From the NCBI GenBank assembly GCA_021155855.1, contig JAJNAZ010000007.1, positions 1-64,000 of the forward strand: a stretch of 64,000 nucleotides of DNA, in the 5' to 3' direction. The notes beneath the pieces were generated by a model. The model saw nothing but the letters and a program-made list of their open reading frames with translations, made no database searches and had not been told where the DNA came from. Positions 43,632 to 59,248 of this stretch are shown here, in pieces. The DNA is from Solirubrobacterales bacterium (GTDB lineage: Bacteria > Actinomycetota > Thermoleophilia > Solirubrobacterales > 70-9). The first letter of the stretch is position 1. Every line of letters begins with the position of its first letter. Both the position numbers and the translations under genes were made by a program.

Positions 43632-43634
43632 CCT

Positions 43635-43913
43635 CTAGAGGAAGAAGGCGATCAGGCCGAAGATGAAGGTGTAGAAGGCGACCGCCTCGGTGAGTGCGAA
43701 GCCGAGCCAGCGGATCGCCTGCAGCTCGTCCTTCATCTCCGGCTGGCGGGCGACGGATTCGATCTCCTTGCCGAAGATGATCCCGATGCCGATCCCCGCG
43801 CCGATCGATCCGAGGCCGGCGCCGACGCCGAGCGCGATCGCCTTGCCGGCGTCGACCACGGGCTCGAGGTCGACGGCCTGCGCGGCCTGCGCGAGCGGAA
43901 TCAAGACGTCCAT
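43635..43913 (-). CDS. atpE: F1Fo ATP synthase c subunit
   Basis: A 92-residue proteolipid hairpin of the rotor ring. Helix one is glycine-rich ([20 protein letters not shown]), the polar loop is ARQPEM, and helix two carries the ion-binding Glu76 in [15 protein letters not shown]. The residues around it lack the Gln/Ser pattern of sodium-coupled rings, so proton coupling is expected. An N-terminal extension of about 17 residues precedes helix one and may be cleaved or amphipathic. Confidence 0.95.
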
Positions 43914-43929
43914 TGAGTTAGCTCCTTTT

Positions 43930-44841
43930 CTAGTGTGTCTCGGCGGTCGCCCCGCCGAGGTAGATCGCGGTCAAGGTCGAGAAGATGAATGCCTGCAGGG
44001 TGGCGATCAGGCCCACCTCGAGGATGAAGAAGAAGAATGCGAGCGGGAACGTGAGCAGCCCCAGGGCAGCCACGCCGAGCAGCACCGCGAGCCCGCCGCC
44101 CATGAACAGCAGCAGCAGGTGGCCGGCGAGGATGTTCGCGAAGAGCCGCACCGAGAGCGAGATCAGACGCGCGAACTGGGAGACCGCCTCGATCACGAAG
44201 ATGAACGCCTTCGCGGCCGGGTTCATGCTCTCCAGGCCCGGGGGCAGCCATGACTTCAAATAGCCGATGAAGCCCTTCGCCCGGATCCCCTCGACGTGGT
44301 AGGAGAACCAGACCACGAGCGTCAGCACGAGCGGGATCGAGAGGTTCGCCGTCGCGGCGTAGAGGGCCAGGGACGGCACCTCCAGGCCGAAGATGTCGAT
44401 CTTGTGCTCGGTGTTGATCGGCAGCGGCAGAAAGCCGATCATGTTCGAGAACCAGATGAAGAAGAACAACGTCGCCAGGAACGGAAACCAGCGCTGCGCC
44501 AGTCGCTCGTCGGGGATGTTGCCGCGGGTGATGTTGTTGCGGGTCAGGTCGTAGGCGAGCTCCACCGCCATCTGGATCTTGTTCGGCTCGCGCTGCATCC
44601 GGCTGGCGATGAACGTCATCGCGCCGATCGTCAGCCCGCAGGCCAACAGCAGGTAGAGCACCGCCTTGTTGATGCTGAGGTCGATGCCGGCGATCTCGAT
44701 CGAGATCCACGGGTCGAGCTTGAACTCGTTCTGCGGCTGGAAGGATTCGTTCTTGCCCTCGTTGCCGAGGACGACCAGGAGCAGGATCAGGATCGCGAAG
44801 TAGATCCCCACCCCGAGGAAGATCTTCGCCTTTCTGGTCAC
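43930..44841 (-). CDS. atpB: F1Fo ATP synthase a subunit
   Basis: A 303-residue membrane stator that forms the proton half-channels. Several hydrophobic segments are visible; the essential Arg is in [18 protein letters not shown]. The N-terminus has an extra membrane segment ([20 protein letters not shown]) and a short polar loop before the conserved core. GTG 44841 overlaps the stop of the small membrane protein gene upstream (GTGA). Confidence 0.94.
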
Positions 44842-45263
44842 GCGTCCGCCCGCTCGGGGTGAAGCAGTTTCGTCAGCGCCAGGGAACCGAGGTGGACGGT
44901 GACCAGCGCCAGGGTGAGGACCGCCGCCGCGAGGCCGTCCTCGCGTTCGCCGAGCAGGCCGACGAGCAGGATGGCGAGCGCCACCAGCCAGACCCGACCG
45001 AGGGTCGAGGCGCCGACCAGGCCGAGCGCGGTGCGGCGGTCGCCGCGGGCGAGCGCGGCGGCCGCGCGGCGCTCGGCGAAGGCGAGGATCGCATGCTGGG
45101 CGAGCCAGGCCGCTGCGGCGGCGGCGTAGCCGAGCAGCGGCAGGTCCGCGAGCACGAATACCGGAAGCGCGATCGCGAGCAGGCCGAGGTCGGCGTACCG
45201 AAGCAGGGCGCTCGGACGACCACCGTCGGCGGCCTCAGAGCCTTCTAAAGCGAGCGTAGACAA
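44838..45263 (-). CDS. AtpI-like membrane protein of the ATP synthase operon
   Basis: About 141 residues with four hydrophobic helices (for example LGLLAIALPVFVLADLPLLG and GRVWLVALAILLVGLLG). Size, topology and place directly before atpB match subunit I, an assembly factor for the c ring. The sequence itself is weakly conserved. The start is uncertain: TTG 45263 lies inside the upstream AtpZ-like gene and no ribosome site is obvious; TTG 45269 is another option. The gene's stop overlaps atpB. Confidence 0.65.
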   Translation of the reverse strand: MSTLALEGSEAADGGRPSALLRYADLGLLAIALPVFVLADLPLLGYAAAAAAWLAQHAILAFAERRAAAALARGDRRTALGLVGASTLGRVWLVALAILLVGLLGEREDGLAAAVLTLALVTVHLGSLALTKLLHPERADA

Positions 45264-45432
45264 GAGCAAGACCGGCGACGAGACCCGCGAACAGCCCAGC
45301 GAGGCCGAACGGGATCGCAAGGTCCACCAGCGACCCGAGCCCGTACCCGGCCGCCGCCCCGGCGATCATCGCTCCGACCACGGACACGCCCGCCGTGGCG
45401 GCGTCCGCCCTCGTCGGAGGGCCCTCTGTCAT
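45235..45432 (-). CDS. AtpZ-like two-helix membrane protein
   Basis: A 65-residue protein: a polar N-terminus, then two membrane helices (AGVSVVGAMIAGAAAGYGLG and AGLFAGLVAGLALVYARF) separated by a short loop. This is the AtpZ/AtpI-like pattern (putative F0F1-ATPase subunit) that begins many atp operons. AtpZ-AtpI complexes have been linked to magnesium transport; the acidic residue in GSLVDLAIP is in the right region. It is the first gene of the operon. Confidence 0.75.
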   Translation of the reverse strand: MTEGPPTRADAATAGVSVVGAMIAGAAAGYGLGSLVDLAIPFGLAGLFAGLVAGLALVYARFRRL

Positions 45433-45598
45433 CCGAAAAGCTGAAGCTGCGGCCAGGCAATGACGGTCGCTAAGTCCGATCGATCCCAGGGAAAAGAAGA
45501 GCCGCCAGGCACCGGCGGGCCGGCAACCGGGCGGGGCCGCGACTATAGCCGAACCAGGCCACCTTCGGCGCCAGCTTGTAACAAGTTTGTGACAGCCG
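45433..45598 (-). promoter_or_regulatory. Leader and probable promoter of the ATP synthase operon
   Basis: The 166-bp gap between the WecA-like stop and the AtpZ-like start. TATAGT on the minus strand (45547-45542) is the best -10 candidate, giving a leader of about 100 bases; no good -35 is seen. Just upstream is the palindrome CTTGTAACAAG (45575-45585), placed where a regulator could bind. Confidence 0.4.
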
Positions 45599-46888
45599 CT
45601 ACCGCGGATCCTCGACCGTCTCGAACTCCCCGGTCTCGGGCTCGATCTCCGCCCACTCCCCGGTCTCGGGATCGACGGTGGCGAAGCTCCCGGTCTCCAG
45701 CTCGCGCGCCACTCCCTCGTCGACCTCCGCGTCGGCGACCGGGGCGCCGCGGGCGTCGGCAAGGTCGCGCGAGCGCTTGCGCCGGAGCTTCAGGATCTCG
45801 AGCGTGATCACGAGGTAGACGCTCGCCGCCGCGGCGAGCAGCAGGCAGCCGATCATCACCGCGGCCCAGGCGGCGTCGAAGTTGCCTCGGTCGTCGGAGT
45901 AGGGGACGAAGCGCAGCGCCAGCGCCAGACCGGCCATCACCAACGCCCAGCCGTAGAGGTAGGCCAGGGTGCGCCGTTGCGAGAAGCCGATGTCGGCCAT
46001 CCGGTGGTGCAGGTGCCAGCGGTCGGCGCGGTAGATCGGGCGCCGGTACTTGATTCGCTTCGCGATCACGAAGCCGGTGTCGAAGATCGGCACGGCGAGG
46101 ATCACCAGGGGGAAGAACAGGGCGACGACGGCGTTCGTCTTCAGCGCGCCCTGGACTGCGATCGCTCCGAGCAGGTAGCCGAGCAGATTGGAGCCGGTAT
46201 CGCCCATGAAGCTGGACGCCGGCGGAAAGCCGTGGCGCAGAAACCCGAGCGCTCCTCCCGCGGTGAGGGCGGCGATAACCGCGGCGCTCGTGCGCGATAG
46301 CGACAACGCCACCACGGCGAGCGTGGTGGCACAGATCACGCAGACTCCGGCGGCAAGGCCGTCGACACCGTCGATCAGGTTGATGATGTTGATCACCGCG
46401 ACGATGCCCGCGATCGTCAGCAGGTGGCTGAGCCTGACGTTGCCGGCGAACGGCGCGCTGAGCAGATCGACCGACGCGAGATCTATGCGCCCGAGAAATG
46501 GCAGCGCGAAGCTCGCGACCTGCACGCCGCTGAAGACGGGGATCGCGGCCGCTGCCGCTTGTCCGAGCAGCTTCGGTGCGGCCGACAGGTCCCAGATGTC
46601 GTCCGCAACTCCGACCAGGGCGATTGCGATCGCGCCGCCGAGGATGGCGCGAGTCAGCGGGACCCAGGGCAAAAACAGCGTCCCGCCGATCACGACCGCG
46701 ATCAGGATCGCCAGGCCGCTCAGCTTCGGCGTGGGGACCGTGTGCAGACTGCGCTCGTTGGGGTAGTCGATCGCACCTATTCGGCGCGCAATCCCCTCGG
46801 CGGTGGGGACCATCAACCAGGCGAGCGCTGCCGCTACGACGAACGCGATCAGGGCGAAGATGGGCTCCGGGCGCCCGTCGACGAGCAT
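45599..46888 (-). CDS. WecA/MraY-family phosphoglycosyltransferase
   Basis: A 429-residue polytopic protein of about 11 hydrophobic segments that would transfer a sugar-1-phosphate (typically GlcNAc-1-P) from a UDP-sugar to undecaprenyl phosphate. Active-site blocks are VGVADDIWDL (metal-binding Asp pair), INIINLIDGVDGLAAG, SFMGDTGSNLLGYLL and the cytoplasmic HLHHRMADIGFSQRR histidine loop. The C-terminal 60 residues are cytoplasmic and acidic, with DPETGEWAEIEPETGEFE forming two imperfect repeats. It occupies the rfe/wecA position found just before atpI in actinobacteria. Confidence 0.9.
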   Translation of the reverse strand: MLVDGRPEPIFALIAFVVAAALAWLMVPTAEGIARRIGAIDYPNERSLHTVPTPKLSGLAILIAVVIGGTLFLPWVPLTRAILGGAIAIALVGVADDIWDLSAAPKLLGQAAAAAIPVFSGVQVASFALPFLGRIDLASVDLLSAPFAGNVRLSHLLTIAGIVAVINIINLIDGVDGLAAGVCVICATTLAVVALSLSRTSAAVIAALTAGGALGFLRHGFPPASSFMGDTGSNLLGYLLGAIAVQGALKTNAVVALFFPLVILAVPIFDTGFVIAKRIKYRRPIYRADRWHLHHRMADIGFSQRRTLAYLYGWALVMAGLALALRFVPYSDDRGNFDAAWAAVMIGCLLLAAAASVYLVITLEILKLRRKRSRDLADARGAPVADAEVDEGVARELETGSFATVDPETGEWAEIEPETGEFETVEDPR

Positions 46889-46902
46889 CGCCGCGGCTCA
46901 GG

Positions 46903-47913
46903 CTATCCGGTGCACGCCCCGAGGACGCCCTCGACGAGGATGCGCGGGTCACGGGGATGGCGAGGGCCCGGCTCGGTGGTTCGTTTTCGCAACTCGAGCT
47001 GCTTCGGGTCGGCCAGACGCCGCAGGCGTCCCGCGGCGATCAACTTTTCGTCCACGGCGCCCATCCGGCCGCCGAAGATCGTGTAGGCCGGCGTCCCCAG
47101 CGCGACGGCCTCGCGGTTCATGGTGCCGCCCCCGCTGACGACGAGGTCGGCGTAGGCAACCAGGCTCTGGGCATCGATCACGCGATCGGGGACGATGAGC
47201 GAATCGCCGGCACGCATTCGCGCGTCGCGGCGCTGATCCTCGCTGCGCGGGAGCACCACCGCGACCGTGCGCGGATCGGCGGCCAGTCGATCGAGCACCG
47301 CCTCATAGAGCCGGTTTCGCGAGCGGTACTCCGAGGTGTCGTCGGGTGGGCGGACGACGGCCAGGATCCGCTTGCGGTCGATCCCCAACCCGCTGAGCAC
47401 ATCCGGGTTGGGCTCGAAGTCGGACAGGTAGTAGTCCTCCTTGAGGCCGGGATAGCGGCAGAGGTTCGACGGCGATGCGCCGATCCGACTCAACCGATCG
47501 ACTGGGATCGCGTCCGGGACCAGCACCCGGCGCGCGGCTCTGAAGCTGATTCTGCGCTGCAAGCCGGCGAACTCGTAATCCTGCATCTGCACGGCCGGCA
47601 GGCGCAGGATCGCGCAGACGACGGCGAGGTCGACCGAGCCGTGGGCAAGCGCGAGGTCGAACCGTCGCCGGCGCGCCCAGAAACAGAGCCGCGCGCTGCG
47701 GCGCGCCAAGGCGCCGGCCTTCCCCACGGCCGAGGCTCCCCCGTGGCGGTCTATGACCTCGTGGGCGATCCCGAGCCGATCAAGCATCGCCTCGGTCTGG
47801 CCGAACCGGCGCGTGGTCACGAGCACCTCGTGCGCCGACGCCCGCAGCAAGGCAATGATCGGCCGTAGCACCAGAGGATGGGGCGGGGACGTCATGTCCA
47901 CCCAGATGCGCAT
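46903..47913 (-). CDS. DUF354-family glycosyltransferase-like protein
   Basis: A 336-residue cytosolic protein. MRIWVDMTSPPHPLVLRPII is the DUF354 N-terminus, and the C-terminal half shows DLVVSGGGTMNREAVALGTP, the sugar-nucleotide-binding style of GT-B folds related to UDP-GlcNAc 2-epimerase and MurG. DUF354 genes often occur in polysaccharide clusters, but their reaction is not established. It lies between two WecA-type genes (gaps of 7 and 14 bases), so a step on the lipid-linked sugar they make is plausible. The ATG at 47913 is the first that respects the upstream stop. Confidence 0.82.
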   Translation of the reverse strand: MRIWVDMTSPPHPLVLRPIIALLRASAHEVLVTTRRFGQTEAMLDRLGIAHEVIDRHGGASAVGKAGALARRSARLCFWARRRRFDLALAHGSVDLAVVCAILRLPAVQMQDYEFAGLQRRISFRAARRVLVPDAIPVDRLSRIGASPSNLCRYPGLKEDYYLSDFEPNPDVLSGLGIDRKRILAVVRPPDDTSEYRSRNRLYEAVLDRLAADPRTVAVVLPRSEDQRRDARMRAGDSLIVPDRVIDAQSLVAYADLVVSGGGTMNREAVALGTPAYTIFGGRMGAVDEKLIAAGRLRRLADPKQLELRKRTTEPGPRHPRDPRILVEGVLGACTG

Positions 47914-47920
47914 CGCTGTT

Positions 47921-49117
47921 CTAGCGGTGAGCGGTGAGCGCCCGCTCCAGAGGTTCCTCCCCGTCCTCCTCGGTGAGCTCCGAGGCGCCGTCGACGGGCG
48001 GAGCGAAGCGGCGAAGACCGAGCGCCTCGAGGTGTCGCGCCTTGATGATCTCAAGGTTGTAGACCATCCAGACCGAGGTCAGCAGCACCGCGAGCGCGCC
48101 CGCGGCGGCGATCGCCGCGTTGGAGACATCGATCTCACCACCCGGCCGCGGGGGCAGGAAGCGAAGCAGGAGCGCGTAGGCGGCGACCAGCCCTGCCCAG
48201 ACGTGCAGGTAGGCGGCGGTTCGGCGCTGCGAGTACCCGATTCGCATGAAGCGATGGTAGAAGTGGTTGTGATCGGCGCCCCAGGCCGGACGCCGGTATT
48301 TCAACCGCTTCAGGACTACGAATGAGGTGTCGAGAATGGGCACGGCGATCACCAGCATGGGCGCAACCAGGGCGATCGTCGCCGCGGTCTTGAGCACACC
48401 CTCGACCGAGACCGTCGCTAACAAGAACCCCAGCGCGAGCGCCCCGGAATCGCCCATGAAGATCTTCGCCGGGTGATAGTTGTGCCACAGGAAGGCGAGC
48501 GTGGCCGCGCAAATGATCCCGGCAAGCACGGCGGCATCGGCGCGACCCCAGGATGCCGCGAGGAGCGCGAAAGACGCGGACGCGATCGCCACGATGCCGG
48601 CGGCAAGCGAGTCCATCCCGTCGATTAGGTTGATCAGGTTCGCGACCAAGACGATCCAGAGAACCGTCAGCGGGTATCCGATCCAACCCACGTCGTGATC
48701 GCCAATCAGCGGCAGGGTGATGTGGCGGAAAGTGAGGTCCGCCCCGATCACGGGGATCAACGAGACCGCAACCACCGCCGCGAGCTTCGCCCAGGGGCTG
48801 ATTCCCCAGATGTCATCCGCCACGCCGACAACGGCGATCGCCCCGGTGCCGATCAGGATCGCCGGATACGGGCCCTCGAGGTCGATGACGAGGAGGGCCG
48901 AGATGATGATCCCGAGCACGATCGCGATCCCGCCGATGCGGGGGATCGCGTGCGTGTGGATGCGCGGGCGGTCGTCGCCGAGGTCGAGTCCGCCGATCCG
49001 CGGGGCCAGCCATCCGACCAGCGGAGTCAGCACGAGCACGATGGCGGCCGCACACACGAAGCCCCAGAGGAACGCTTCGTTGCTTGCCAGCGCGTCCACG
49101 GCATCCGTGAACGACAT
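47921..49117 (-). CDS. Second WecA/MraY-family phosphoglycosyltransferase
   Basis: A 398-residue paralogue of the enzyme encoded at 45599-46888, sharing VVGVADDIWGISPWAKL, NLINLIDGMDSLAAG, KIFMGDSGALALGFLL, the NHFYHRFMRIGYSQRRTAAY loop and the VYNLEIIK tail. About 11 membrane helices. It should start a second lipid-linked glycan or form an alternative first enzyme. ATG 49117 has TATAAC on the minus strand seven bases upstream (49130-49125), so it is probably leaderless and heads the three-gene run that ends before the atp operon. Confidence 0.9.
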   Translation of the reverse strand: MSFTDAVDALASNEAFLWGFVCAAAIVLVLTPLVGWLAPRIGGLDLGDDRPRIHTHAIPRIGGIAIVLGIIISALLVIDLEGPYPAILIGTGAIAVVGVADDIWGISPWAKLAAVVAVSLIPVIGADLTFRHITLPLIGDHDVGWIGYPLTVLWIVLVANLINLIDGMDSLAAGIVAIASASFALLAASWGRADAAVLAGIICAATLAFLWHNYHPAKIFMGDSGALALGFLLATVSVEGVLKTAATIALVAPMLVIAVPILDTSFVVLKRLKYRRPAWGADHNHFYHRFMRIGYSQRRTAAYLHVWAGLVAAYALLLRFLPPRPGGEIDVSNAAIAAAGALAVLLTSVWMVYNLEIIKARHLEALGLRRFAPPVDGASELTEEDGEEPLERALTAHR

Positions 49118-49186
49118 GCGGGTGGTTATACAGCACGCGCGGGACCGTTCGGGCGGCACGGCGCACGGCGGGCTACTATCCGCAGC
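49118..49186. promoter_or_regulatory. Divergent promoter of the polysaccharide locus
   Basis: In 69 bases, TATAAC on the minus strand (49130-49125) lies seven bases before ATG 49117 and TACTAT on the plus strand (49174-49179) lies seven bases before TTG 49187. Both genes lack ribosome binding sites. The two -10 boxes are 43 bases apart, so shared regulation is likely. Confidence 0.55.
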
Positions 49187-50494
49187 TTGACCCAGGCTCT
49201 GCGACCGGCCGCGGTCTTTGAGGACCGCATTGCGACCCGCGAGGCAACGCTCGGGGTCGTCGGCCTCGGATACGCGGGGCTGCCGCTCGCGGTCGCCCAA
49301 GCGGAGGCCGGCTTCGACGTAGTCGGCATCGACCTCGACGAAGCCCGGGTTGACGCGGTGAGCGAGCGTCGCTCGTACCTGATCGACGTGCCGGCACAAC
49401 GGTACGACGAACTCGACGGGCGCCTGCGGGCGACCAGCGACTACTCGGCGGTCGCCGAGCTCGACGCGGTGACGATCTGCGTCCCGACACCGCTGTCGAA
49501 GACCCGCACGCCCGATATCTCCCACGTCGTCTCCGCGGCCGAGGCCGTGGCCGAGAATCTGCGCCCAGATCAGCTCGTCGTGCTGCAGTCGACAACCTAC
49601 CCCGGCACCACCGAGGAGATCGTGCTGCCGATCCTCGAGCGCACCGGGAAGGTGGTGGGAGAGGGCGTTTTCTTGGGCTACGCGCCCGAGCGGGTCGATC
49701 CCGGTAACGCCACATACAACCTCCGCAACACGCCGAAGCTGGTCGCGGGCGTGACCGACGAGTGCCTCAAGCGCACCGAGCTCCTCTTCCGCCAGTTCGT
49801 CGAAACGGTGATTCCGGTGAGTCGACCGATGGTCGCCGAGACCGCGAAGCTGCATGAGAACACGTTTCGCTCGGTCAACATCGCGCTGGCCAATGAGCTG
49901 GCATTGATGTGCGACCGGCTCGGAATCTCGGTCTGGGAGGTGATCGACGCCGCGGCCACGAAGCCGTTCGGATTTTTGTCCCACTACCCCGGCCCCGGCC
50001 TCGGCGGAGACTGCATCCCCGTCGTGCCTCACTTCCTCGCCTGGCGCCTGCGCGAGTACGGGTACTCGGCGCAGCTCATCGACGCCGCCCACGAGATCAA
50101 CGCGCAGATGCCGATCTACGTCGTGCAGAAGATTGCCGACGCGCTCAACGACTCCGGCCTGCCGATCAAGGGCTCGCGGCTTCTGCTGCTCGGCATGGCC
50201 TACAAGCCCGACGTCCACGATACGCGCGAGTCCCCGAGCCTCGAGGTGATGCGACAGCTGATCGCACGCGGCGGCGACGTCCGCTATTGCGACCCGTGGG
50301 TCCAGGAGGTGGAGCTCGAGGGCACCCGCCACCGCGGCGTCGAGTGGTCAGCGGCGGTCGTGGCGGACGCCGACTGCGTCGTCGTGCTCACGGCTCACCG
50401 CCGCTTCCTCGACGAACCACATTGGCGTGACGCGAAGCTGATCGTCGACACCCGCAACGTGGCGCCCCCGGCACCCAATCTCACGCAGCTTTAG
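49187..50494 (+). CDS. UDP-N-acetyl-hexosamine 6-dehydrogenase (WbpA/WecC-like)
   Basis: A 435-residue nucleotide-sugar dehydrogenase. LGVVGLGYAGLPLAVAQAEA binds NAD; LQSTTYPGTTEEIVLPIL, GYAPERVDPGN and AETAKLHENTFRSVNIALAN are specific for the UDP-GlcNAc/UDP-ManNAc dehydrogenase branch; the catalytic Cys is in GLGGDCIPV; the C-terminal domain contains LGMAYKPDVHDTRESP. It makes a UDP-HexNAc-uronic acid. The only start ahead of the Rossmann fold is TTG 49187, seven bases after a TACTAT box. It leads a four-gene plus-strand run. Confidence 0.88.
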   Translation: MTQALRPAAVFEDRIATREATLGVVGLGYAGLPLAVAQAEAGFDVVGIDLDEARVDAVSERRSYLIDVPAQRYDELDGRLRATSDYSAVAELDAVTICVPTPLSKTRTPDISHVVSAAEAVAENLRPDQLVVLQSTTYPGTTEEIVLPILERTGKVVGEGVFLGYAPERVDPGNATYNLRNTPKLVAGVTDECLKRTELLFRQFVETVIPVSRPMVAETAKLHENTFRSVNIALANELALMCDRLGISVWEVIDAAATKPFGFLSHYPGPGLGGDCIPVVPHFLAWRLREYGYSAQLIDAAHEINAQMPIYVVQKIADALNDSGLPIKGSRLLLLGMAYKPDVHDTRESPSLEVMRQLIARGGDVRYCDPWVQEVELEGTRHRGVEWSAAVVADADCVVVLTAHRRFLDEPHWRDAKLIVDTRNVAPPAPNLTQL

Positions 50495-50495
50495 T

Positions 50496-51347
50496 TTGGC
50501 ATCCCTGCTCGTCCTCGGTGCCGGGTATCTCGGCGCGGCTCTCGCCGAGGCGGCCCTCGACGAGGGCGACCAGGTAACTCTCGCGGACAACTGGTACGCG
50601 ACCGAGCGCGATCAGCTCCTGCCCCTCGAACGCCGCGGCGCCCGGGTCGAGAACGCCGACATCCGCGAGCGCGATGCGATGCGCCGGCTGCTCTCCGACG
50701 GCCACGACCGCGTCTACCTGCTCGCGGCCCAGGCGAGCCGGCCACTCGCCTTCGCCGACCCCGATTACACGGAGCAGACGAACCTCGTCGGGCCGCGCGT
50801 CGTAGCCGAGGAGCTGGGAGCCGGTGCGGGCACGGCGCTCGTCTTCGCCAGCTCCCTGCGCGTCTACGGACCGGCGCCGGCCGGCGACGTCGGACCCGAC
50901 CACGGATACGGCTCCCAGGGCGATCTCGCCCACCTGTCGAAACTCTATGCCGAGATGCTGTTGCGCATGCATGCCGCGCAGGCCGGATTCGACCTCGCGA
51001 TCCTGCGCCTCGGAATCGCCTACGGCCCGAGCCCGGTGGAGCACTCGCGGCCCGAGTCGCAAACGGTGGTCGACAAGTTCCGTCGCCTGGCCGCATCGGG
51101 ATCGCCCCTGCCACTCGATCGCGGCGGGGAGGCAACGATCGGAGTCGTGCACGTCTCCGACGCTGCTCGCATTCTTCGCGCGGCGCCGACGGAAAGGGGC
51201 ATTTCGGTTGCCAACGTCGCTGCGGAATCGACGACGGTCGCAGCGGTGGCGGCCATGGCCGAGGGCCGCGAGCCGGCCGCAGGGCCGGCATGCCGCTTCG
51301 TGACCCCGTTCGATTACAGGCACCGGCTCGCCGACTACCTAGGATGA
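50496..51347 (+). CDS. NAD-dependent epimerase/dehydratase-like SDR lacking the catalytic tyrosine
   Basis: A 283-residue extended SDR. The nucleotide loop is LGAGYLG (Gly8, 10, 13), the wedge strand VYLLAAQASRP and the Ser strand VFASSLRVYG are present, but where YxxxK is expected the protein has AHLSK (Ala145, Lys149), so the catalytic Tyr is replaced by Ala. The overall shape is still epimerase-like (LRLGIAYGPSP, GVVHVSDAARI). TTG 50496 starts two bases after the dehydrogenase stop. It may be a non-redox or partner subunit, or use another residue; substrate unknown, presumably a UDP-sugar. Confidence 0.78.
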   Translation: MASLLVLGAGYLGAALAEAALDEGDQVTLADNWYATERDQLLPLERRGARVENADIRERDAMRRLLSDGHDRVYLLAAQASRPLAFADPDYTEQTNLVGPRVVAEELGAGAGTALVFASSLRVYGPAPAGDVGPDHGYGSQGDLAHLSKLYAEMLLRMHAAQAGFDLAILRLGIAYGPSPVEHSRPESQTVVDKFRRLAASGSPLPLDRGGEATIGVVHVSDAARILRAAPTERGISVANVAAESTTVAAVAAMAEGREPAAGPACRFVTPFDYRHRLADYLG

Positions 51348-51378
51348 GGGTCCGAGGCCGCGGACCGCAGCGAGATCG

Positions 51379-52263
51379 ATGAGACTCGTCGTCACAGGCG
51401 CGACCGGTTTTTTGGGTTGGCGCGCGGCGACCCTGCTCGCTGAAGCGGGACACGACGTCCTCGCCGTCGCCAAGCCGCGCGGCGCGAAACGCGTGCACGC
51501 CACCGACCTGGTCACAACCGAGCTCGATGCCGGCGCCCCCGCGGCACGCGACCTGATCTCCGGCCGCGACGCCATCCTTCACTTCGCAGGAATTCCCGAT
51601 CCCGCCCGTGCCCGGGCCGATCCCGCGCAGGCCGTGCGCGAGAACGTGGGCACGACCTTGAATCTGCTCGCTGGGTGCCTCGAGCACGGTGCGGCACTGC
51701 TGTACCCGTCCACCGTGAGGGCCGCTGTCGAGCCGCCCCCGGACGTCTATGCCCTCTCCAAGTGGCTCGGCGAACAGGTGTGTCGCGAGCACCCGGCGCC
51801 GGCGACCGTGATGCGCATCAGCTCCGCATACGGGCCTGGTCAGGTCGCCTGGGAGGGGGCGACGGGCGCGATTGCGGCCTTCACGGCCCGCGCGCTGGAG
51901 GGCGCCCCGATCGTGATCGAAGGCGATCCCGACCGCACGCGAGACTTCGTCTACGTCGACGATGTCGTCGCCGCGCTGGAAGCGTTCATTAGCGCGGGTC
52001 GATGGAACCAGACGATCACGCTCGCGAGCGGGGTCGCCACCTCGCTGCGGCAGGCGGCCGAGCTCGTGCGCGAGGCGACCGGCTCGGAGTCCGAGATCCA
52101 AACGCGGGCCGGAGAGCTGGCCGAGGGGGAGGACATCAGCTACCCGGTCGCACCCACGGCCCTAGAGCTAGGCTTTCGATCGCGCCCGCTCGCCGAGGGC
52201 ATCGCCTCGTATGTCGCCTGGATCCAACCCCATCCCGCTGCTCAAGGCCGCGCCCGAGCCTGA
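51379..52263 (+). CDS. NAD-dependent nucleotide-sugar epimerase (extended SDR)
   Basis: A 294-residue extended SDR. TGATGFLGWRAATLL binds NAD, AILHFAGI and LLYPSTVRA are the core strands, and YALSKWLGE supplies the catalytic YxxxK missing in the preceding paralogue. DFVYVDDVVAALEAF and the downstream region fit UDP-glucose/UDP-GlcNAc epimerases and dehydratases. The 3' end overlaps the TIM-barrel/CapD fusion gene by 53 bases, so translation is linked. The exact sugar is not deducible. Confidence 0.87.
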   Translation: MRLVVTGATGFLGWRAATLLAEAGHDVLAVAKPRGAKRVHATDLVTTELDAGAPAARDLISGRDAILHFAGIPDPARARADPAQAVRENVGTTLNLLAGCLEHGAALLYPSTVRAAVEPPPDVYALSKWLGEQVCREHPAPATVMRISSAYGPGQVAWEGATGAIAAFTARALEGAPIVIEGDPDRTRDFVYVDDVVAALEAFISAGRWNQTITLASGVATSLRQAAELVREATGSESEIQTRAGELAEGEDISYPVAPTALELGFRSRPLAEGIASYVAWIQPHPAAQGRARA

Positions 52264-54223
52264 GCAGATCGCCGACCGGCTGGCTGGAGGCCCCCCGCAG
52301 GGGCTCGAGCTCTGCCTCGCGGGCGATCACATTGCCGACGAGGATTCGCTGCGCCGCGCAATTCGGGCATGCGATGGTCTCAGCAAGCAAGGCCTGAAGC
52401 TCACAGCCGAGGCCCCGGTGAGTTGGCCGAGTGGCGCTTTCGTGCGCGTCGATCGGCTCGATACCGAGGCAGAGTCGGGGATCGAACGGAGCGCCGAGTT
52501 CGCGCGGGCCATCGGATCGCCGGTTCTCACCATTCATTTGTTCATCCCGCTCGACCCGGCGGAGTTTCGAGTCGCCGGCCCGGTGGACCGCGAATCGGTC
52601 GAGCGCTTCCTGCGCTTTTACGTCGAGGCCTGCACCAGTCGGGGCATCACGCCGCTGATCGAGAACGTCCCCCCGGTGCTCCGCATGCGCACGGGCGGTA
52701 TCTACCTCTCCCAGGTCGGGGGTCACTGGCGTGACCTGAACGAGTGGCGCGGACGGATTCCGGAGCTCGCGTTCACGCTGGATACCTCCCACGCCGCCCT
52801 TTTCCGTTCGTTCGCCAGGGCGTATCCGGCGCTCTTTAAGGTCGAGTGCCCGGAGGAGCTCGCGCTCGAGCGCTACGTCGCCGAGCTCGGCGCGGCGACC
52901 CGGGTGGCACACGTATCGAATGCCCGCGGTCTGCTCGGCGAGGGCCTTCCCTACGGAGCGGGAGAGCTCGACCTCGACCCTATCGTCAGGCGCCTCGGTG
53001 AGCTCGTCCCCTACATCGTCGCCGAGATCAACGAGCCCGACCCGGCTCGCTCGGTGGAGATGAAGGAGGGGTACGCGGCGATCGAGTCCGCTCTGGCAGC
53101 GGAGCACAACCCGGCGCCTTTAGCTCGGCAACCGACGCTCGGCGCCCGCGACCGGTTCGACTGGCAGGCGGTGCTGCGACGACGGGACCCGGTCCCATCG
53201 ATGCTCGAGCTCGAACAGCTCTTCGGCGGGCGGCGCGTACTGATCACAGGGGGCGGCGGCTCGATCGGCCGAGCGCTTGCCACCTTCTTGCTCGGCTTCC
53301 GACCGGAGCGCATCGTGCTCCTGGACGCGCACGAGCCGTCGCTCGCAACCGACCGCCGCGCTCGTGATCCCGCCGACCTCGAACGCGTCTCGCACCTGCT
53401 TGGCGACGTGCGCAATGGGGAGCGACTCGAGTCCACGCTTGCCGCCGAGAAACCCGAGGTCGTCTTTCACCTCGCCGCGTACAAGCACGTCGACTGGGCC
53501 GAGCGGTTCCCGGCGGAGTTCGTCGACACCAACCTGCGAGGGAGCTGGAACGTGCTGCGAGCCGCTGAGGCAAGCGCGGTTCAGACGGTGGTCGTGGCCT
53601 CGACCGACAAGGCGGCGCTGGCAGGCAGCCTCTATGCCCGCACCAAACGCTTGATGGAGCAGCTCACCGCCGACGCCGGGGACGGGCGACTCGCGGTGCG
53701 CTTCGTCAACGTGCTCGCCAGCGCCGGCAGCGCCTCGGAGCTTTTCTTGCGCCAAGCCCGCGGCGGGGTCCCGCTCACGATCACCGACGCGGGCATGGTC
53801 CGCTACTGGATCACGATGGGTCATGCGACTTGCCTTGCGGCACACGCGGCACTCCTGGCCACGGCCGGCAAGGGGCTCGCGGCTCCGGCAGACCCGGTCA
53901 TGATGACGGTCGGCGAGCTGGCCGCGCGAATCTGGCGCGAGTGCGGGCGCGATGGTACGCCGGAGATCACCGCGATCGGCATTCGCGGCGGGGAGACGAT
54001 GACCGAGGTATTGACCGGCCCCGGCGAGCACCTGACCGATGAAGCTCAAGCTCACCAGGGGGTGGCCGCCATCTCGGGCGGGCCTGGAAGATCTTGCGCC
54101 GCCTGGGTCGCCGAGCGACTCAAGGAGCGAGGCGTACGCACGCGGGACGCTAACGCGGTGTGGCTCGAGGCGCTCGGCCGTCCCGACTTGCTCGAGGCCC
54201 AGACGGTGTCGAACTCGGCTTAG
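52211..54223 (+). CDS. Fusion of a xylose-isomerase-like TIM barrel with a CapD-type nucleotide-sugar SDR
   Basis: A 670-residue two-domain protein. Residues about 15-300 form an AP-endonuclease-2/sugar-isomerase-type TIM barrel with its metal-site residues in place: Glu151 (IENVPP), Asp191 and His194 (LDTSHA), His234 (AHVSNARG) and Glu272 (AEINEPD). Residues about 335-650 form a CapD/FlaA1-type polysaccharide-biosynthesis SDR with ITGGGGSIGRAL (346-356), HLAAYKHVDWAE, ASTDKAAL and YARTK (Tyr475, Lys479), plus the late GGETMTEVL. CapD enzymes are UDP-HexNAc 4,6-dehydratases or epimerases. I know no standard name for the fusion. No membrane helices precede the CapD part. It ends by overlapping the convergent GT4 gene by four bases. 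Confidence 0.8.
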   Translation: MSPGSNPIPLLKAAPEPEQIADRLAGGPPQGLELCLAGDHIADEDSLRRAIRACDGLSKQGLKLTAEAPVSWPSGAFVRVDRLDTEAESGIERSAEFARAIGSPVLTIHLFIPLDPAEFRVAGPVDRESVERFLRFYVEACTSRGITPLIENVPPVLRMRTGGIYLSQVGGHWRDLNEWRGRIPELAFTLDTSHAALFRSFARAYPALFKVECPEELALERYVAELGAATRVAHVSNARGLLGEGLPYGAGELDLDPIVRRLGELVPYIVAEINEPDPARSVEMKEGYAAIESALAAEHNPAPLARQPTLGARDRFDWQAVLRRRDPVPSMLELEQLFGGRRVLITGGGGSIGRALATFLLGFRPERIVLLDAHEPSLATDRRARDPADLERVSHLLGDVRNGERLESTLAAEKPEVVFHLAAYKHVDWAERFPAEFVDTNLRGSWNVLRAAEASAVQTVVVASTDKAALAGSLYARTKRLMEQLTADAGDGRLAVRFVNVLASAGSASELFLRQARGGVPLTITDAGMVRYWITMGHATCLAAHAALLATAGKGLAAPADPVMMTVGELAARIWRECGRDGTPEITAIGIRGGETMTEVLTGPGEHLTDEAQAHQGVAAISGGPGRSCAAWVAERLKERGVRTRDANAVWLEALGRPDLLEAQTVSNSA

Positions 54224-55248
54224 CGCCGCTCGGCGATCGCCCGTTCGAGCACGGCTGCCATGCGCGCGGCCTGGCGGCGGACGTCATGCTCGGCTGCCGC
54301 CTTGCGCGCGGCTGGATTGGGCGCCGGCAGCGTCGCGGCGCGCTCCAGGGCCGCGGCGAGGCCGGCCGTGTCGTTGGGATCGGCAAGCACGCCAGTTTCC
54401 GGGGTAACGAACTCGGGCGGCCCGCCGACGGTGGTGGCGACGACGCTTCGCTCCATCGCCATCCCCTCGAGCGTCGCTTGGCCGAAGGGCTCGATCTGCG
54501 ACGGCTGACAGAGGACGTCGCAGGCGGCGATCCAGCGCGGGACCTCGGCCTGCGGGATGCGGCCGGTGATCCGCACCCCGGTGCGGCCCTCGAGCTCGGG
54601 GCGCAGGGGACCGTCGCCGACGAAAGTGAGCCGGCCCCGGCCGAGGCGCGCGAACGCGACGGCGAGCCGAACGACGTTCTTGCGCTCGATCAGCGAGCCG
54701 ACGCACAAAAACGCCGGGCCCTCACCCTCCCAGCCGAGCTCGCGGCGTGCCGCGGCGGCAGGTCGTGGGGCGAACGCGTCCAGGTCGACCCCGCAGTCGG
54801 CGATCGTGAGCTTCGACCGCGCCGCCGGGATCCGCTCGGCGAGACGGTCGGCAAGCCATTGCGAGTTGGCGATCACCGCGGCCGACCGGCACAGCACCGA
54901 ACGGGTCGCGAGCGTCACGCCGCGAACGCGGCCGAGGTTGGCGACGTCCTGACCGTGGGCCATGACCACCAACGGCTTCCGAGCGGCTCTTGCCGCGATT
55001 GCGCCGGCGGCGCCGGTGGGAAAGAGAAAGTGCGCGAAGATGACGTCGGGGCGCGCGCGCCGCGCTCTGGCCGCGGCGTCGCGGGCCAGGCGGGCATACT
55101 CCGAGCGGGGCCCGCCTCGGCGGCTGATCGCGACGACCTCGACCTCGTTTCCGAGTTCCTCCAACTCCCGAGCCAGCGGCACCAAGAAGCTGCCGAGGTC
55201 GGGGTGCGCGGGGCTCGGCCACATCTGGGTGACGAGCAGGATCCGCAC
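54220..55248 (-). CDS. GT4-family glycosyltransferase
   Basis: A 342-residue GT-B enzyme. The N-terminal half starts RILLVTQMWPSPAHPDLGSF with a glycine-containing acceptor loop and DVIFAHFLFPTGAAG; the C-terminal half has FLCVGSLIERKNV, LTFVGDGPLRPEL, GRIPQAEVPRWIAACDVLCQ and the retaining-enzyme motif EPFGQATLEGMAMERSVVAT. It adds a sugar to a growing lipid-linked glycan at the cytoplasmic face. GTG 55248 is preferred because TAAGTT (minus strand, 55261-55256) is seven bases upstream and the family starts at this strand; ATG 55311 would add 21 residues. Confidence 0.88.
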   Translation of the reverse strand: MRILLVTQMWPSPAHPDLGSFLVPLARELEELGNEVEVVAISRRGGPRSEYARLARDAAARARRARPDVIFAHFLFPTGAAGAIAARAARKPLVVMAHGQDVANLGRVRGVTLATRSVLCRSAAVIANSQWLADRLAERIPAARSKLTIADCGVDLDAFAPRPAAAARRELGWEGEGPAFLCVGSLIERKNVVRLAVAFARLGRGRLTFVGDGPLRPELEGRTGVRITGRIPQAEVPRWIAACDVLCQPSQIEPFGQATLEGMAMERSVVATTVGGPPEFVTPETGVLADPNDTAGLAAALERAATLPAPNPAARKAAAEHDVRRQAARMAAVLERAIAERR

Positions 55249-55323
55249 TCGGCGAAACTTACGCGGCGGCGCTAGGTTAGGACGAGCGGGGGCAAATTCG
55301 AGCTCCGACATAGGGAGGTATCC

Positions 55324-55935
55324 GTGATGGAGCAAAGGAGAGGTTGGTTGCCGTCGCCGGCGATGCTGGTCGCGTTCATCGCGCTGGTGGCCGCGCTGAC
55401 CGGTTCGGCCGTCGCCCTGCAGGGCAAGAACTCGGTGAAGTCGAACGACATCGCCCCGGGGGCCGTCAAAGGCAAGGACATCCACACGGAGGCGGTCAAA
55501 CCACCGAAGCTCAACCTGATCAAGGTCGACGGCGAGGCCGGGCCGCTGCCCACGGCATCGGTAGCGGCAACGGATCTCGGCGGGCCCTCGGTTACGGTCA
55601 ATGTCCCCGAAACCGGACTGGTTGCGATCTACGCCCGCGGCACCGGTGAGATCGACCCCGGAGGCAACGGCAGGCGTGCGCAAGTGCATCTGTTCGAACC
55701 GAAGCTGTTCCCCTCGGCGCCCAAGATCATCGAGTTCGCATCCTCGGAGCCACAGCTTCGGATCAGCACTCCCGGATCAGGTGACCCCGACGGCGCGGTG
55801 AACCTCGCCCGCGGTGGCTGGATCGTGTTTCCCGCCGACGAGGGCCGGTACACGTTCACGCTGTTCTACAGCGTCGCAGGCGGCGGAACTGCGACGTTCA
55901 CGAACACCGGTCTCTGGGCCGGCGTCGTCGGCTAG
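55324..55935 (+). CDS. Secreted beta-rich protein, unknown function
   Basis: A 203-residue exported protein. The leader contains PSPAMLVAFIALVAALTGSA, followed by GKNSVKSNDIAPGAVKGKDI, a repeat-like phrase I associate with Solirubrobacterales surface proteins (KNGSITGKDVKNGS style). The rest is beta-rich with no cysteine and no catalytic motif, suggesting a lectin or collagen-like head domain. AGGGAGGT at 55312-55319 is a clear ribosome site serving GTG 55324 or ATG 55327. It is divergent from the GT4 gene and convergent with glyA with no gap. Confidence 0.75.
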   Translation: MMEQRRGWLPSPAMLVAFIALVAALTGSAVALQGKNSVKSNDIAPGAVKGKDIHTEAVKPPKLNLIKVDGEAGPLPTASVAATDLGGPSVTVNVPETGLVAIYARGTGEIDPGGNGRRAQVHLFEPKLFPSAPKIIEFASSEPQLRISTPGSGDPDGAVNLARGGWIVFPADEGRYTFTLFYSVAGGGTATFTNTGLWAGVVG

Positions 55936-57216
55936 CTAGACCGGCGTCGCGGAGAGCTGGGGATAGAGCGGATACCGCTCCATCAAGGAGTGGGTCCGCT
56001 CGCCCAGCGCCTCGCGCTCCGGCTCGAAGCGGTCGGAGAGCGCGATCGAGATCACCTCGGCGATCTCACGCATCTCGGGCGGGCCGAGCCCGCGGGTGGT
56101 GAGCGCGGGAGTCCCGATGCGCAGGCCCGACGGGTTCATCGGCGGGCGCTCGTCGAACGGGATCGCGTTGCGGTTGACGGTGATCCCGACCTGCTCCAGG
56201 CGCTGCTCGGCGGTCTTGCCGTCGAGCCCCGTCGGCCCGAGATCGACGAGCACCAGGTGGACGTCGGTGCCGCCGGTGAGCACCTCGACCCCGTTGGCGA
56301 TCAGCCCGTCGGCGAAGGCGTGCGCGTTGGCCACCGTCTGGCGCTGCCGGGCGCGGAAGGGCTCCGACTGCGCGATCCCGAGCGCCACCGCCTTGGCGGC
56401 GATGATGTGCATCAGGGGCCCGCCCTGCTGGCCGGGAAAGACGGAGCGGTCGATGTCCTTGGCGAGCTCCTCGCGACAGAGGATCATTCCGCTGCGGGGC
56501 CCGCAGAGCGTCTTGTGGATCGTGGTTGTGACGATGTCCGCGTGCGGTACCGGGTTCGGGTGCTCGTCGGCGGCGACGAGCCCGGCGAAGTGCGCCATGT
56601 CGACCATCAGCTTCGCGTCGACCGAGTCGGCGATCTCGCGAAAGGCGGCGAAGTCGAGCTGGCGCGGATAGGCCGACCAGCCGGCGACGATCACCTTCGG
56701 CCGATGCTCGTGGGCGAGGCGTTCGACCTCCTCCATGTCACAGCGATAGTCGTCGCGGCGGACGTGGTAGGCGACGACCTCGTAGAGCTTGCCGGAGAGG
56801 TTGAGCTTCATCCCATGAGTCAGGTGGCCGCCGTGGTCGAGGGCCATGCCCATGATCGTGTCGCCGGGCTCGAGGAAAGCCATGTAGGCCGCGTTGTTCG
56901 CCTGCGCGCCCGCGTGTGGCTGCACGTTCGCGTGCTCGGCGCCGAACAGCTCCAGCGCCCGGTCGATCGCCAGCTGCTCGGCGACGTCGACCTCCTCGCA
57001 GCCGCCGTAGTAGCGGCGCCCCGGATAGCCCTCGGCGTACTTGTTGGTGAGCACGGAACCCGCCGCGTCGAGCACCGCCTGGGGGACGAAGTTCTCCGAG
57101 GCGATCATCTCCAGGGTGCCCTGCTGACGCTCGAGCTCGCGCCGTAGCACCTCGGCGATCTGTGGATCCACCTCGGCCAGGGGCGCGGTCTGGAAGTCGT
57201 CGGGCAGGTCGGTCAA
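55936..57216 (-). CDS. glyA: Serine hydroxymethyltransferase
   Basis: A 426-residue PLP enzyme that converts serine and tetrahydrofolate to glycine and methylene-tetrahydrofolate. [36 protein letters not shown] and [15 protein letters not shown] are standard; the PLP Lys is in [13 protein letters not shown], where the usual Arg after TL is Cys and the following GG is [15 protein letters not shown] and [14 protein letters not shown] complete the match. TTG 57216 is fixed by GAGGAG seven bases upstream. In firmicutes glyA also lies between ywlC and the atp genes. Confidence 0.96.
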
Positions 57217-57311
57217 GTCGGCTCCTCGCTGTCGTTCGGATTCAGGTTGACAGACGCCGCGGCGATCGGCCCAAAGCGGCGTCCTCCGGCCGCAGCGCCG
57301 ATACTGCACCG

Positions 57312-57724
57312 GTGGGGCAGGACGATGTCGAACTGGTCAGCGAGGCGTTCGGGCTGCTCGACTCGGATCGTTACGAGGAGGTGCTGCCGCTCGTCGCCGA
57401 GGGCTTCGAGATGGTCACGACCAGCGAGGTCGCGAGCGAACCCGACACCTACCGCGGGCGCGCCGGCGTGCGGCGCTGGTTCGAGTCGTTCCTCGAGGCG
57501 ATGGACTCCGTGCAGGTCGAGGCCCGCCGCCTGCACCCGGCCGGACGGATACGGGCCTGGTGATCGCCGAGTTCGTGATCCGTGCCCGCGGCCAGCGCAG
57601 CGGGATCGAGGCCGAGCAGGCGGCGATCGCGCTGGTCACGGTGGTGGACGGTCAACTGCTGCGGCTCGAGTTCTTCACCGGCCTCGAGAAGGCGCGAGCC
57701 GCCGCGCGAGCTCGCTCGAGCTGA
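57312..57724 (+). pseudogene. SnoaL/NTF2-like gene with a frameshift near 57550
   Basis: From GTG 57312 the frame reads [40 protein letters not shown] and VEARRLHPAG, a typical NTF2-like domain start, then hits TGA at 57561-57563. In another frame the domain continues without loss: DTGLVIAEFVIRARGQRSGI, then ALVTVVDGQLLRLEFF up to TGA 57722-57724. A single-base change near 57540-57555 would restore one protein of about 137 residues. Either a recent frameshift or a sequence error. GATACT eight bases before GTG is a possible leaderless -10. The end overlaps the convergent tsaC gene by 50 bases. Confidence 0.7.
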
Positions 57725-58316
57725 GCACGCCGGGGCGCAGGACCGCCCAGCCCCCTCCCGCCTCGATCTCGGTCAGGTCGATGACCATCGAGGGCGATCC
57801 GGACAGCTCGCCGCCGTCGATCGCGAGGTCGGCGCCGGTGAGGATCGCCGAGGCGACCGCGTCGAGGCGGTTCGCCGGCCGCTCGCCGGCGGGGTTGGCC
57901 GAGGTCTGAAAGACCGCGACACCGGCGCCCGCCAGCGGCCCCTCGATCAACCTCAGTCCGAGCCGGCCGGGATCCTCGCCGCAGGCGAGCGGGTAGAGGC
58001 GCTCAGGGTTGTCGACGACCAGGGTCACCGGGCCCGGGAGCAGCGCCGCGAGCGCGTCGCGGGTGCGCGGGCCGAGGGTCGAGATCAGCTCGCGCATCGC
58101 CAGCGGAACGAAGAACATCACCGCCGAGGGCTTGCCCGCCTCGCGGCCCTTGAGCGCGTGGATGCGCTCGATCGCCTCCGCCCGACCCGGATCGCAGGCG
58201 AGCCCGTAGACCCCGTCGGCGGGAAACACCACAACGCCGCCGGCGCGGACGACGCGCTCAAGCCCCGCCCGCGCAGCCGCGGCGCCGTCGCGCGGAACCG
58301 AGATCATCTCCGTCAC
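57675..58316 (-). CDS. ywlC: Threonylcarbamoyl-AMP synthase (Sua5/YrdC/YwlC family)
   Basis: A 213-residue enzyme for the first step of the tRNA t6A37 modification: it makes threonylcarbamoyl-AMP from threonine, bicarbonate and ATP. VVVFPADGVYGLACDP, the ligand loop IHALKGREAGKPSAV, LLPGPVTLVVDN and FQTSANPAGERP are the conserved blocks of the YrdC domain. No extra Sua5 C-terminal domain is present. It follows prmC by 40 bases, the common rpmE-prfA-prmC-ywlC order. The last 16 codons overlap the frameshifted SnoaL-like gene. Confidence 0.92.
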   Translation of the reverse strand: MTEMISVPRDGAAAARAGLERVVRAGGVVVFPADGVYGLACDPGRAEAIERIHALKGREAGKPSAVMFFVPLAMRELISTLGPRTRDALAALLPGPVTLVVDNPERLYPLACGEDPGRLGLRLIEGPLAGAGVAVFQTSANPAGERPANRLDAVASAILTGADLAIDGGELSGSPSMVIDLTEIEAGGGWAVLRPGVLSSSELARRLAPSRGR

Positions 58317-58356
58317 GATCGACGCCTTCCTCGCCCTGGGGACGGAGCGTCAGCCA

Positions 58357-59193: not shown

Positions 59194-59248
59194 GCTCAGC
59201 CCGCCGGGCCCGCGGACGCACGGGCATCGCCCTCGTCGCCGGCGGCCA

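What the first reader, a model, noticed from the sequence alone, without database searches (positions are those of the whole stretch)
50496..51347. SDR with catalytic tyrosine replaced by alanine beside a normal paralogue
The YxxxK site reads AHLSK (Ala145, Lys149) although the NAD loop, Ser strand and substrate-side regions are conserved. The next gene is an SDR with a normal YALSK. A dead-looking and a live SDR in tandem could form a heterodimer, or the first may catalyse a step that does not need the Tyr, as in some 4,6-dehydratases where it is replaced.
Basis: seen in the sequence. Interest (0 to 1): 0.55.

Follow-up and report, generated by a model that had tools for sequence, protein, structure and literature searches.

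The report
Sugar-enzyme relative with displaced catalytic tyrosine
A bacterial gene for a sugar-enzyme relative has no tyrosine at the usual catalytic spot; this is an inherited trait of a distinct protein family always found beside the same partner genes, so it is probably a rebuilt working site or a partner protein, not a mistake.

Summary
The product of 50496-51347 (here SDRA) reads A145-H-L-S-K149 where an SDR has YxxxK. It is no error: in 24 orthologues from 24 genomes of one class the position is Ala 18, Ser 4, Thr 2, never Tyr. The next gene (SDRB) keeps Y124/K128 in 18 of 18.

(1) An invariant P-Y138-G lies seven residues upstream; MAFFT and hhalign set Y138 on the catalytic Tyr with a seven-residue insertion (Yx10K), so the Tyr may be displaced rather than replaced. 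(2) SDRA also lost the first Gly of GxxGxxG and the Asn and Arg that normally hold the nucleotide phosphates (24 of 24 each). (3) SDRA belongs to a fixed module SDRA-SDRB-[TIM barrel+CapD-like dehydratase]; the SDRA stop and SDRB start overlap by 4 nt in 18 of 22 genomes.

Conservation peaks in the cofactor/active-site loops and overall equals SDRB's, against simple decay. Most likely: a nucleotide-sugar-pathway SDR with a rebuilt active site, working with SDRB. Close rival: a non-catalytic partner of SDRB. A PglF-like 4,6-dehydratase is not supported. New variant of a known kind.

The parts
50496..51347 (+). SDRA: 283-aa extended-SDR-like protein without Tyr in the YxxxK slot
   Evidence: Pfam Epimerase PF01370 95.3 bits; AF2 model mean pLDDT 91.9; closest folds GalE/PelX-type epimerases
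50514..50534 (+). L7-G-A-G-Y-x-G13 cofactor loop: first Gly of TGxxGxxG is Leu, GxGxxG kept
   Evidence: Leu7 24 of 24; Gly 9 of 9 outside SDRs, 18 of 18 SDRB
50850..50855 (+). S119-S120: catalytic Ser region, kept (S119 24/24; S120 Ser 23, Thr 1)
50907..50909 (+). Y138 of the P-Y-G motif: invariant, candidate displaced catalytic Tyr
   Evidence: 24 of 24; aligned with the catalytic Tyr by MAFFT and hhalign
50913..50933 (+). seven-residue insertion x-Q141-x-D143-L144-[AST]145-H146 between Y138-G139 and L-S-K149 (gapped reading)
   Evidence: Q141, D143, L144, H146 24 of 24; D143-H146 columns are gaps in 9 of 9 outside SDRs and 18 of 18 SDRB
50928..50930 (+). A145, the residue in the usual Tyr slot one helical turn before K149
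   Evidence: A 18, S 4, T 2 of 24; predicted helix 144-163 starts 5 residues before K149, as helix 123-137 does before K128 of SDRB
50940..50942 (+). K149, invariant Lys of YxxxK
   Evidence: 24 of 24
51015..51017 (+). I174 in place of the Asn of the R-x-x-N-x-Y-G-P strand
   Evidence: Ile 24 of 24; Asn 9 of 9 outside SDRs; Ser 18 of 18 SDRB
51138..51140 (+). I215 in place of the Arg of TRDxVYVxD
   Evidence: Ile 23, Leu 1 of 24; Arg 9 of 9 outside SDRs and 18 of 18 SDRB
51379..52263 (+). SDRB: extended SDR with Y124-ALS-K128, partner gene
   Evidence: AF2 model mean pLDDT 92.4
52211..54223 (+). one ORF: xylose-isomerase-like TIM barrel (N-terminal, about 1-300) fused to CapD/PseB-like 4,6-dehydratase (C-terminal)
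   Evidence: Polysacc_synt_2 196 bits; AP_endonuc_2 28.8 bits, below its cut-off 31.1; PseB TIGR03589 122.7 bits, cut-off 407.75; TIM part found in 19 of 399 genomes
49178..50494 (+). nucleotide-sugar 6-dehydrogenase (WecC/Cap5O-like), ends 1 nt before the SDRA start; exact start not determined
   Evidence: TIGR03026 414 bits, cut-off 189.8; Cap5O 3ojl E 8.6e-65; absent beside SDRA in six family-f2 loci
47921..49117 (-). WecA/MraY-type polyprenyl-phosphate sugar-1-phosphate transferase, divergent neighbour
   Evidence: Glycos_transf_4 126.5 bits; syntenic

Best explanation
SDRA is a member of a small, clade-specific branch of extended-SDR-fold proteins that helps make a nucleotide-sugar precursor for a surface glycan together with SDRB and a fused isomerase/4,6-dehydratase. 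Its active site has been rebuilt: the usual Tyr slot holds a small residue (Ala/Ser/Thr), and an invariant loop Tyr (Y138), set back by a seven-residue insertion (Yx10K), with Asp143 and His146 of the same loop as alternatives, takes over acid/base work next to the kept Ser119/Ser120, Asn96 and Lys149. It still binds NAD(H). It most likely acts as an enzyme on an intermediate of this pathway, next to and probably in complex with SDRB. Shown: Tyr absence fixed in the clade, invariant loop, kept Asn/Ser/Lys, lost first Gly, Asn and Arg, SDR fold prediction, gene module and 4-nt overlap. Inferred: NAD binding, the acid/base role of Y138/D143/H146, the substrate, and the complex with SDRB.
For: Tyr column A 18, S 4, T 2 of 24, with P-Y138-G-x-Q-x-D-L-[AST]-H-L-[ST]-K-x-Y-x-E otherwise nearly fixed. 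Asn96 and Lys149 24 of 24, Ser119 24 of 24, Asp31 (cofactor ribose, role recalled) 24 of 24. Conservation peaks in cleft loops: 77-83 AAQASRP all seven invariant (rank 1 of 277 windows), 171-178 rank 4 of 276, 119-125 rank 5 of 277, 138-149 rank 11 of 272; the outward helix 150-163 is rank 200 of 270; mean conservation 0.761 against 0.759 for SDRB. MAFFT and hhalign put Y138 on the catalytic Tyr with a seven-residue gap. AF2 model mean pLDDT 91.9; helix 144-163 starts five residues before the Lys, as in SDRB. Foldseek top hits are NAD-dependent UDP-sugar epimerases. All-or-none module with SDRB and TIM-CapD.
Against: The Asn and Arg that usually hold the nucleotide diphosphate are Ile/Leu, and the first Gly of the cofactor loop is Leu, as expected if NDP-sugar turnover were lost. 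The Ser-to-Lys spacing is 29 in the six SDRA rows printed, which I recall as the GalE value, so an ungapped alignment with A145 in the Tyr slot is as good, and Y138 may be a new loop residue. No assay exists.
Confidence: 0.45

Rival explanations
1. SDRA is a non-catalytic (pseudoenzyme) subunit that forms a heterodimer with SDRB through the extended-SDR four-helix interface and stabilises, regulates or positions SDRB, perhaps sensing NAD(H).
For: Loss of Tyr, of the first Gly and of the Asn and Arg. SDRA is always followed by SDRB: 22 of 22 genomes where the contig continues, 4-nt stop/start overlap in 18 of 22. SDRB and CapD keep their catalytic residues. SDR-fold regulatory subunits exist, e.g. 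MAT2B, though it keeps YxxxK (PMC3793261, passages).
Against: The cleft, not the outward helix 150-163, is the most conserved part. SDRB relatives (52-54% identity) stand alone, without SDRA, in three genomes (G246, G258, G326), so an SDRB-type protein does not strictly need SDRA. A 4-nt overlap is common in operons generally (recalled).
Confidence: 0.35
2. SDRA is a 4,6-dehydratase of the PglF/WbpM kind whose Ser/Asp wall replaces the Tyr.
For: Known nucleotide-sugar SDRs without the Tyr are active: TDKxnMx3K (PMC8987622; CapE, PMC3699295).
Against: The wall reads S119-S120-L121-[HQNR]122: no Asp, Glu or Lys in any of 24, and the slot is Ala/Ser/Thr, not Met. The module already has a dehydratase with STDKA (18 of 18).
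Confidence: 0.04
3. SDRA is an ordinary epimerase or reductase using Ser120, His122 or bound water with Lys149, or substrate-assisted catalysis; Y138 has no role.
For: Ser119/120, Asn96 and Lys149 kept; His122 in 19 of 24; closest folds are 4-epimerases.
Against: His122 is Gln 3, Asn 1, Arg 1 in the rest, the Arg being the window's own copy; Asn and Arg phosphate contacts lost.
Confidence: 0.13
4. Sequencing error, misassembly or a decaying single copy.
For: None found for the window; G415 has a broken reading frame near the 3' end of its own copy.
Against: 23 other genomes share the state at 57-67% identity.
Confidence: 0.01

Closest known systems
GalE/PelX-type UDP-sugar 4-epimerases (PDB 6wjb, 7ys8, 4zrm)
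   Same: Fold over the whole chain (VIA Z about 31, rmsd about 2.5 A), best profile hit in the PDB (6wjb 88.9 bits), Asn-Ser-Lys of the catalytic set, Asp after strand 2
   Different: 20-26% identity; no Tyr in the slot, first Gly, Asn and Arg lost, seven-residue insertion before L-S-K; GalE model TIGR01179 36.6 bits against cut-off 262.3
WbpM/PglF/CapE Tyr-less UDP-GlcNAc dehydratases (Mx3K)
   Same: Nucleotide-sugar-pathway SDRs with no Tyr in YxxxK
   Different: They have Met and a TDK wall; SDRA has Ala/Ser/Thr and S-S-L-H (PMC8987622, PMC3699295)
VEP1/PRISE SDRs with a rearranged active site
   Same: Extended-SDR ancestry with a rebuilt catalytic set (PMC3144213, passages)
   Different: VEP1 loses the Lys at the usual place and the Ser, keeps GxxGxxG; SDRA keeps Ser and Lys and loses the first Gly
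MAT2B, NmrA, HSCARG (SDR-fold regulators)
   Same: Possible analogy: SDR fold used for regulation
   Different: MAT2B keeps YxxxK (PMC3793261); no sequence comparison was made here

Membership tests
Extended SDR fold | Rossmann domain plus C-terminal substrate domain, Epimerase family profile | tested here: met
   PF01370 95.3 bits over 20.9; AF2 pLDDT 91.9; Foldseek/VIA to GalE-type structures over residues 1-283
Extended SDR, canonical | TGxxGxxG cofactor loop | tested here: not met
   [VI]LGAGYxG: first Gly is Leu in 24 of 24
Extended SDR, canonical | YxxxK | tested here: not met
   [AST]HL[ST]K in 24 of 24
Extended SDR, canonical | catalytic Asn and Ser/Thr, and the Lys | tested here: met
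   N96 24/24, S119 24/24, S120 S23/T1, K149 24/24
Nucleotide-sugar-active SDR | Asn and Arg residues that hold the nucleotide diphosphate (role recalled from GalE) | tested here: not met
   I174 24/24, I/L215 24/24
Tyr-less dehydratases (WbpM/PglF) | TDKxnMx3K | tested here: not met
   S-[ST]-L-[HQNR] and Ala/Ser/Thr in 24 of 24
GalE equivalog | score above the NCBIfam cut-off | tested here: not met
   36.6 against 262.3
Atypical SDR (catch-all) | SDR fold with altered Gly motif and/or missing Tyr (definition recalled) | tested here: met
NAD(P)-dependent oxidoreductase | binds and turns over NAD(P) | not testable with these tools
   no assay; only sequence hints (Asp31, Lys149)

The most novel reading that the evidence does not exclude
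A new SDR active-site architecture, Yx10K: a seven-residue insertion moves the catalytic Tyr off the helix into a loop, a small residue (Ala/Ser/Thr) fills the old slot, the NDP clamp is replaced by Ile, and the protein works as an obligate catalytic half of a heteromeric SDRA-SDRB enzyme fed by a fused TIM-barrel isomerase/4,6-dehydratase, making an undescribed sugar precursor in Thermoleophilia.
Probability: 0.2. Interest if true: 0.68.

Novelty: new variant of a known kind. Interest (0 to 1): 0.42.

Why it matters
The Tyr of YxxxK is the most general catalytic residue of a very large enzyme superfamily, and only a few families are known to do without it. A clade-wide family that keeps Ser, Asn and Lys, fixes a small residue in the Tyr slot and conserves a Tyr seven residues upstream would be a clean natural test of whether the catalytic Tyr can be moved. 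Paired with a normal SDR in a fixed module, it also gives a testable case of an SDR heteromer.

Tried and rejected
Error or decay: rejected (24 genomes). PglF-like dehydratase: rejected on motif. 'SDRA is a recent duplicate of SDRB': rejected; 29% over 87 aa by BLASTP, and in the tree with six outside SDRs the 24 SDRA rows form one side of a fully supported long branch (100/100; branch pieces 2.71 and 2.87; SDRB was not in that tree). SDRA in other phyla or classes: 396 genomes drawn from the phylum gave two members of the clade (G000, G071, at 450 bits or more), next best 99 bits; the public genome scan, which works from short peptide patterns and can miss relatives, gave 9 loci, all titled Thermoleophilia/Thermoleophilaceae, Gaiellaceae, Solirubrobacter or Actinobacteria/Actinomycetota.

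Which alignment is right, A145 in the Tyr slot or Y138 as displaced Tyr, could not be settled. The helix prediction and spacing favour A145 as the spatial slot; MAFFT and hhalign and the P-Y-G context favour Y138 as the evolutionary Tyr. Both can be true. HMMER against PelX set L144 under the Tyr with a one-residue gap. The tblastn listing missed the first 23 residues of SDRA in L054; one search covers them. My own simple gene caller missed the 6-dehydrogenase and was not used further.

Literature: searches found known Tyr-less dehydratases and VEP1, and in their listings nothing on this family, on Yx10K or on a Thermoleophilia sugar module; the library holds open-licence papers only. Papers seen: PMC8987622 (passages and section 19), PMC3144213, PMC3699295, PMC12820599 and PMC3793261 (passages). 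PMC12820599 shows that a second Tyr can enter an NS-SDR active site from a loop (Tyr73 of Mth373), but there the normal Tyr is kept.

Full report
Observation. The ORF at 50496-51347 (+) encodes 283 aa; its YxxxK site reads A145-H-L-S-K149. The next ORF, 51379-52263, has Y124-A-L-S-K128. Both score as extended SDRs (Pfam Epimerase 95.3 and 109.6 bits); neither reaches the cut-off of any NCBIfam model listed.

Fixed in a clade. Searches of 399 genomes of the class (19 hits) and 232 of the order (15 hits, of which one, G453, is a 30% outsider) give 24 genomes with an orthologue, the window's own included, at 57-67% identity. The Tyr column is Ala 18, Ser 4, Thr 2 of 24. In the same rows Y138, G139, Q141, D143, L144, H146, L147, K149, Y151 and E153 are invariant. 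In the window's own taxonomic family (f1) only G000 has the gene in either search, so presence is patchy there. In the tree of 24 SDRA and six outside SDRs the SDRA rows form one side of a long, fully supported branch; families f2, f3 and f7 are not cleanly separated inside it.

Replaced or displaced? Two readings exist. In the ungapped reading A145 sits in the Tyr slot: Ser120 to A145 is 25 residues in the six rows that I printed, as I recall for GalE, and the AlphaFold2 models start the helix five residues before the Lys in both SDRA (144-163) and SDRB (123-137). In the gapped reading the conserved P-Y138-G is the old catalytic P-Y-G and a seven-residue piece x-Q-x-D-L-[AST]-H was inserted before L-S-K: this is what MAFFT with nine outside SDRs and 18 SDRB gives, and hhalign of the two family alignments. 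Both may hold: A145 as the place in space, Y138 as the Tyr by descent.

More than the Tyr has changed. In all 24 rows the first Gly of TGxxGxxG is Leu7, the strand Asn is Ile174, and the Arg of TRDxVYV is Ile (23) or Leu (1) 215; the nine outside SDRs have Gly, Asn and Arg in 9 of 9 each, and SDRB has Gly, Ser and Arg in 18 of 18 each. Asn96, Ser119, Lys149 and Asp31 are kept in 24 of 24. That Asn and Arg hold the nucleotide phosphates is recalled from GalE. So the NAD side is mostly kept and the usual NDP clamp is gone.

Is it decaying? No sign of it. Mean conservation is 0.761 (24 SDRA rows) against 0.759 (18 SDRB rows). The peaks lie in cleft loops: 77-83 all seven invariant (rank 1 of 277 windows), 171-178 (4 of 276), 119-125 (5 of 277), 138-149 (11 of 272); helix 150-163 ranks 200 of 270 and loop 126-137 256 of 272. 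Other cleft segments are less striking: cofactor loop 7-13 ranks 37 of 277 and 31-37 ranks 93 of 277. The helix 89-109, which also lies in the usual SDR dimer interface (recalled), ranks 70 of 263. I chose the segments from the fold before ranking. A bare scaffold should rather conserve its interface.

The module. The order WecA(-) - [6-dehydrogenase] - SDRA - SDRB - TIM+CapD recurs. SDRB follows SDRA in 22 of 22 genomes whose contig goes on (G257 and G384 end within or just after SDRA); the SDRA stop and SDRB start overlap by 4 nt in 18 of 22, by 1 nt in G416, are 31 nt apart in the window and 46 nt in G450, and cannot be read in G415. Of 399 genomes SDRA is in 19, TIM in 19 and SDRB in 22. 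The SDRA and TIM sets differ only by G221 (contig ends before TIM) and G281 (contig begins inside SDRA). SDRB relatives stand alone in G246, G258 and G326 at 52-54% identity. The 6-dehydrogenase is missing beside SDRA in six f2 loci (L054, L055, L056, L062, L063, L064), so it is not part of the core. The dehydratase half has STDKA...Y...K in 18 of 18 and the TIM half keeps E, D-x-SH, H and E motifs of metal-dependent isomerases (reading them as metal ligands is inference).

Function. The neighbours (WecA-type transferase, 6-dehydrogenase, CapD-like dehydratase) point to a nucleotide-sugar and surface-glycan pathway. I hold that SDRA is an SDR with a rebuilt active site in this pathway, probably complexed with SDRB (0.45); a non-catalytic SDRB partner is the near rival (0.35). 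A PglF/WbpM-like dehydratase is unlikely, because the wall is S-[ST]-L-[HQNR] and not TDK (PMC8987622).

Novelty. Known irregular SDRs in papers that I saw are Mx3K dehydratases (PMC8987622, PMC3699295), and VEP1, where the passage lists YxxxK, YxxMxxxK and YxxxN as the motifs known then (PMC3144213). I found no description of Yx10K or of this family in searches. I rate it a new variant of a known kind, interest 0.42.

Noticed in passing
window 52211-54223: A xylose-isomerase-like TIM barrel is fused in one reading frame to a CapD/PseB-like 4,6-dehydratase; most relatives have the same long open frame (661-683 aa in 13 of the 19 genome matches, the window included; the rest longer or shorter). 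An isomerase fused to a nucleotide-sugar dehydratase looks unusual.
   Followed up: partly
L055 (G328) 5734-9550: WecA-like gene duplicated in tandem, with a truncated second SDRA copy (7072-7392, about 41% over residues 26-132) between them; looks like a local duplication and decay.
   Followed up: partly
window 45599-46888 and 47921-49117: Two WecA/MraY-type transferase genes in the same region, separated by a DUF354 protein (46903-47913).
   Followed up: no
window 43600-59200 and loci L043-L057: The module lies between the atp operon and glyA/prmC genes in several families, so a glycan locus is kept at one chromosomal place although the module itself is patchy.
   Followed up: partly
L074 and L075 (G258, G326); L073 (G246): Stand-alone SDRB relatives without the module; in L074 and L075 they lie next to what looks like a DNA polymerase III alpha gene, with an endonuclease-IV-like gene close by (names by eye).
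   Followed up: partly
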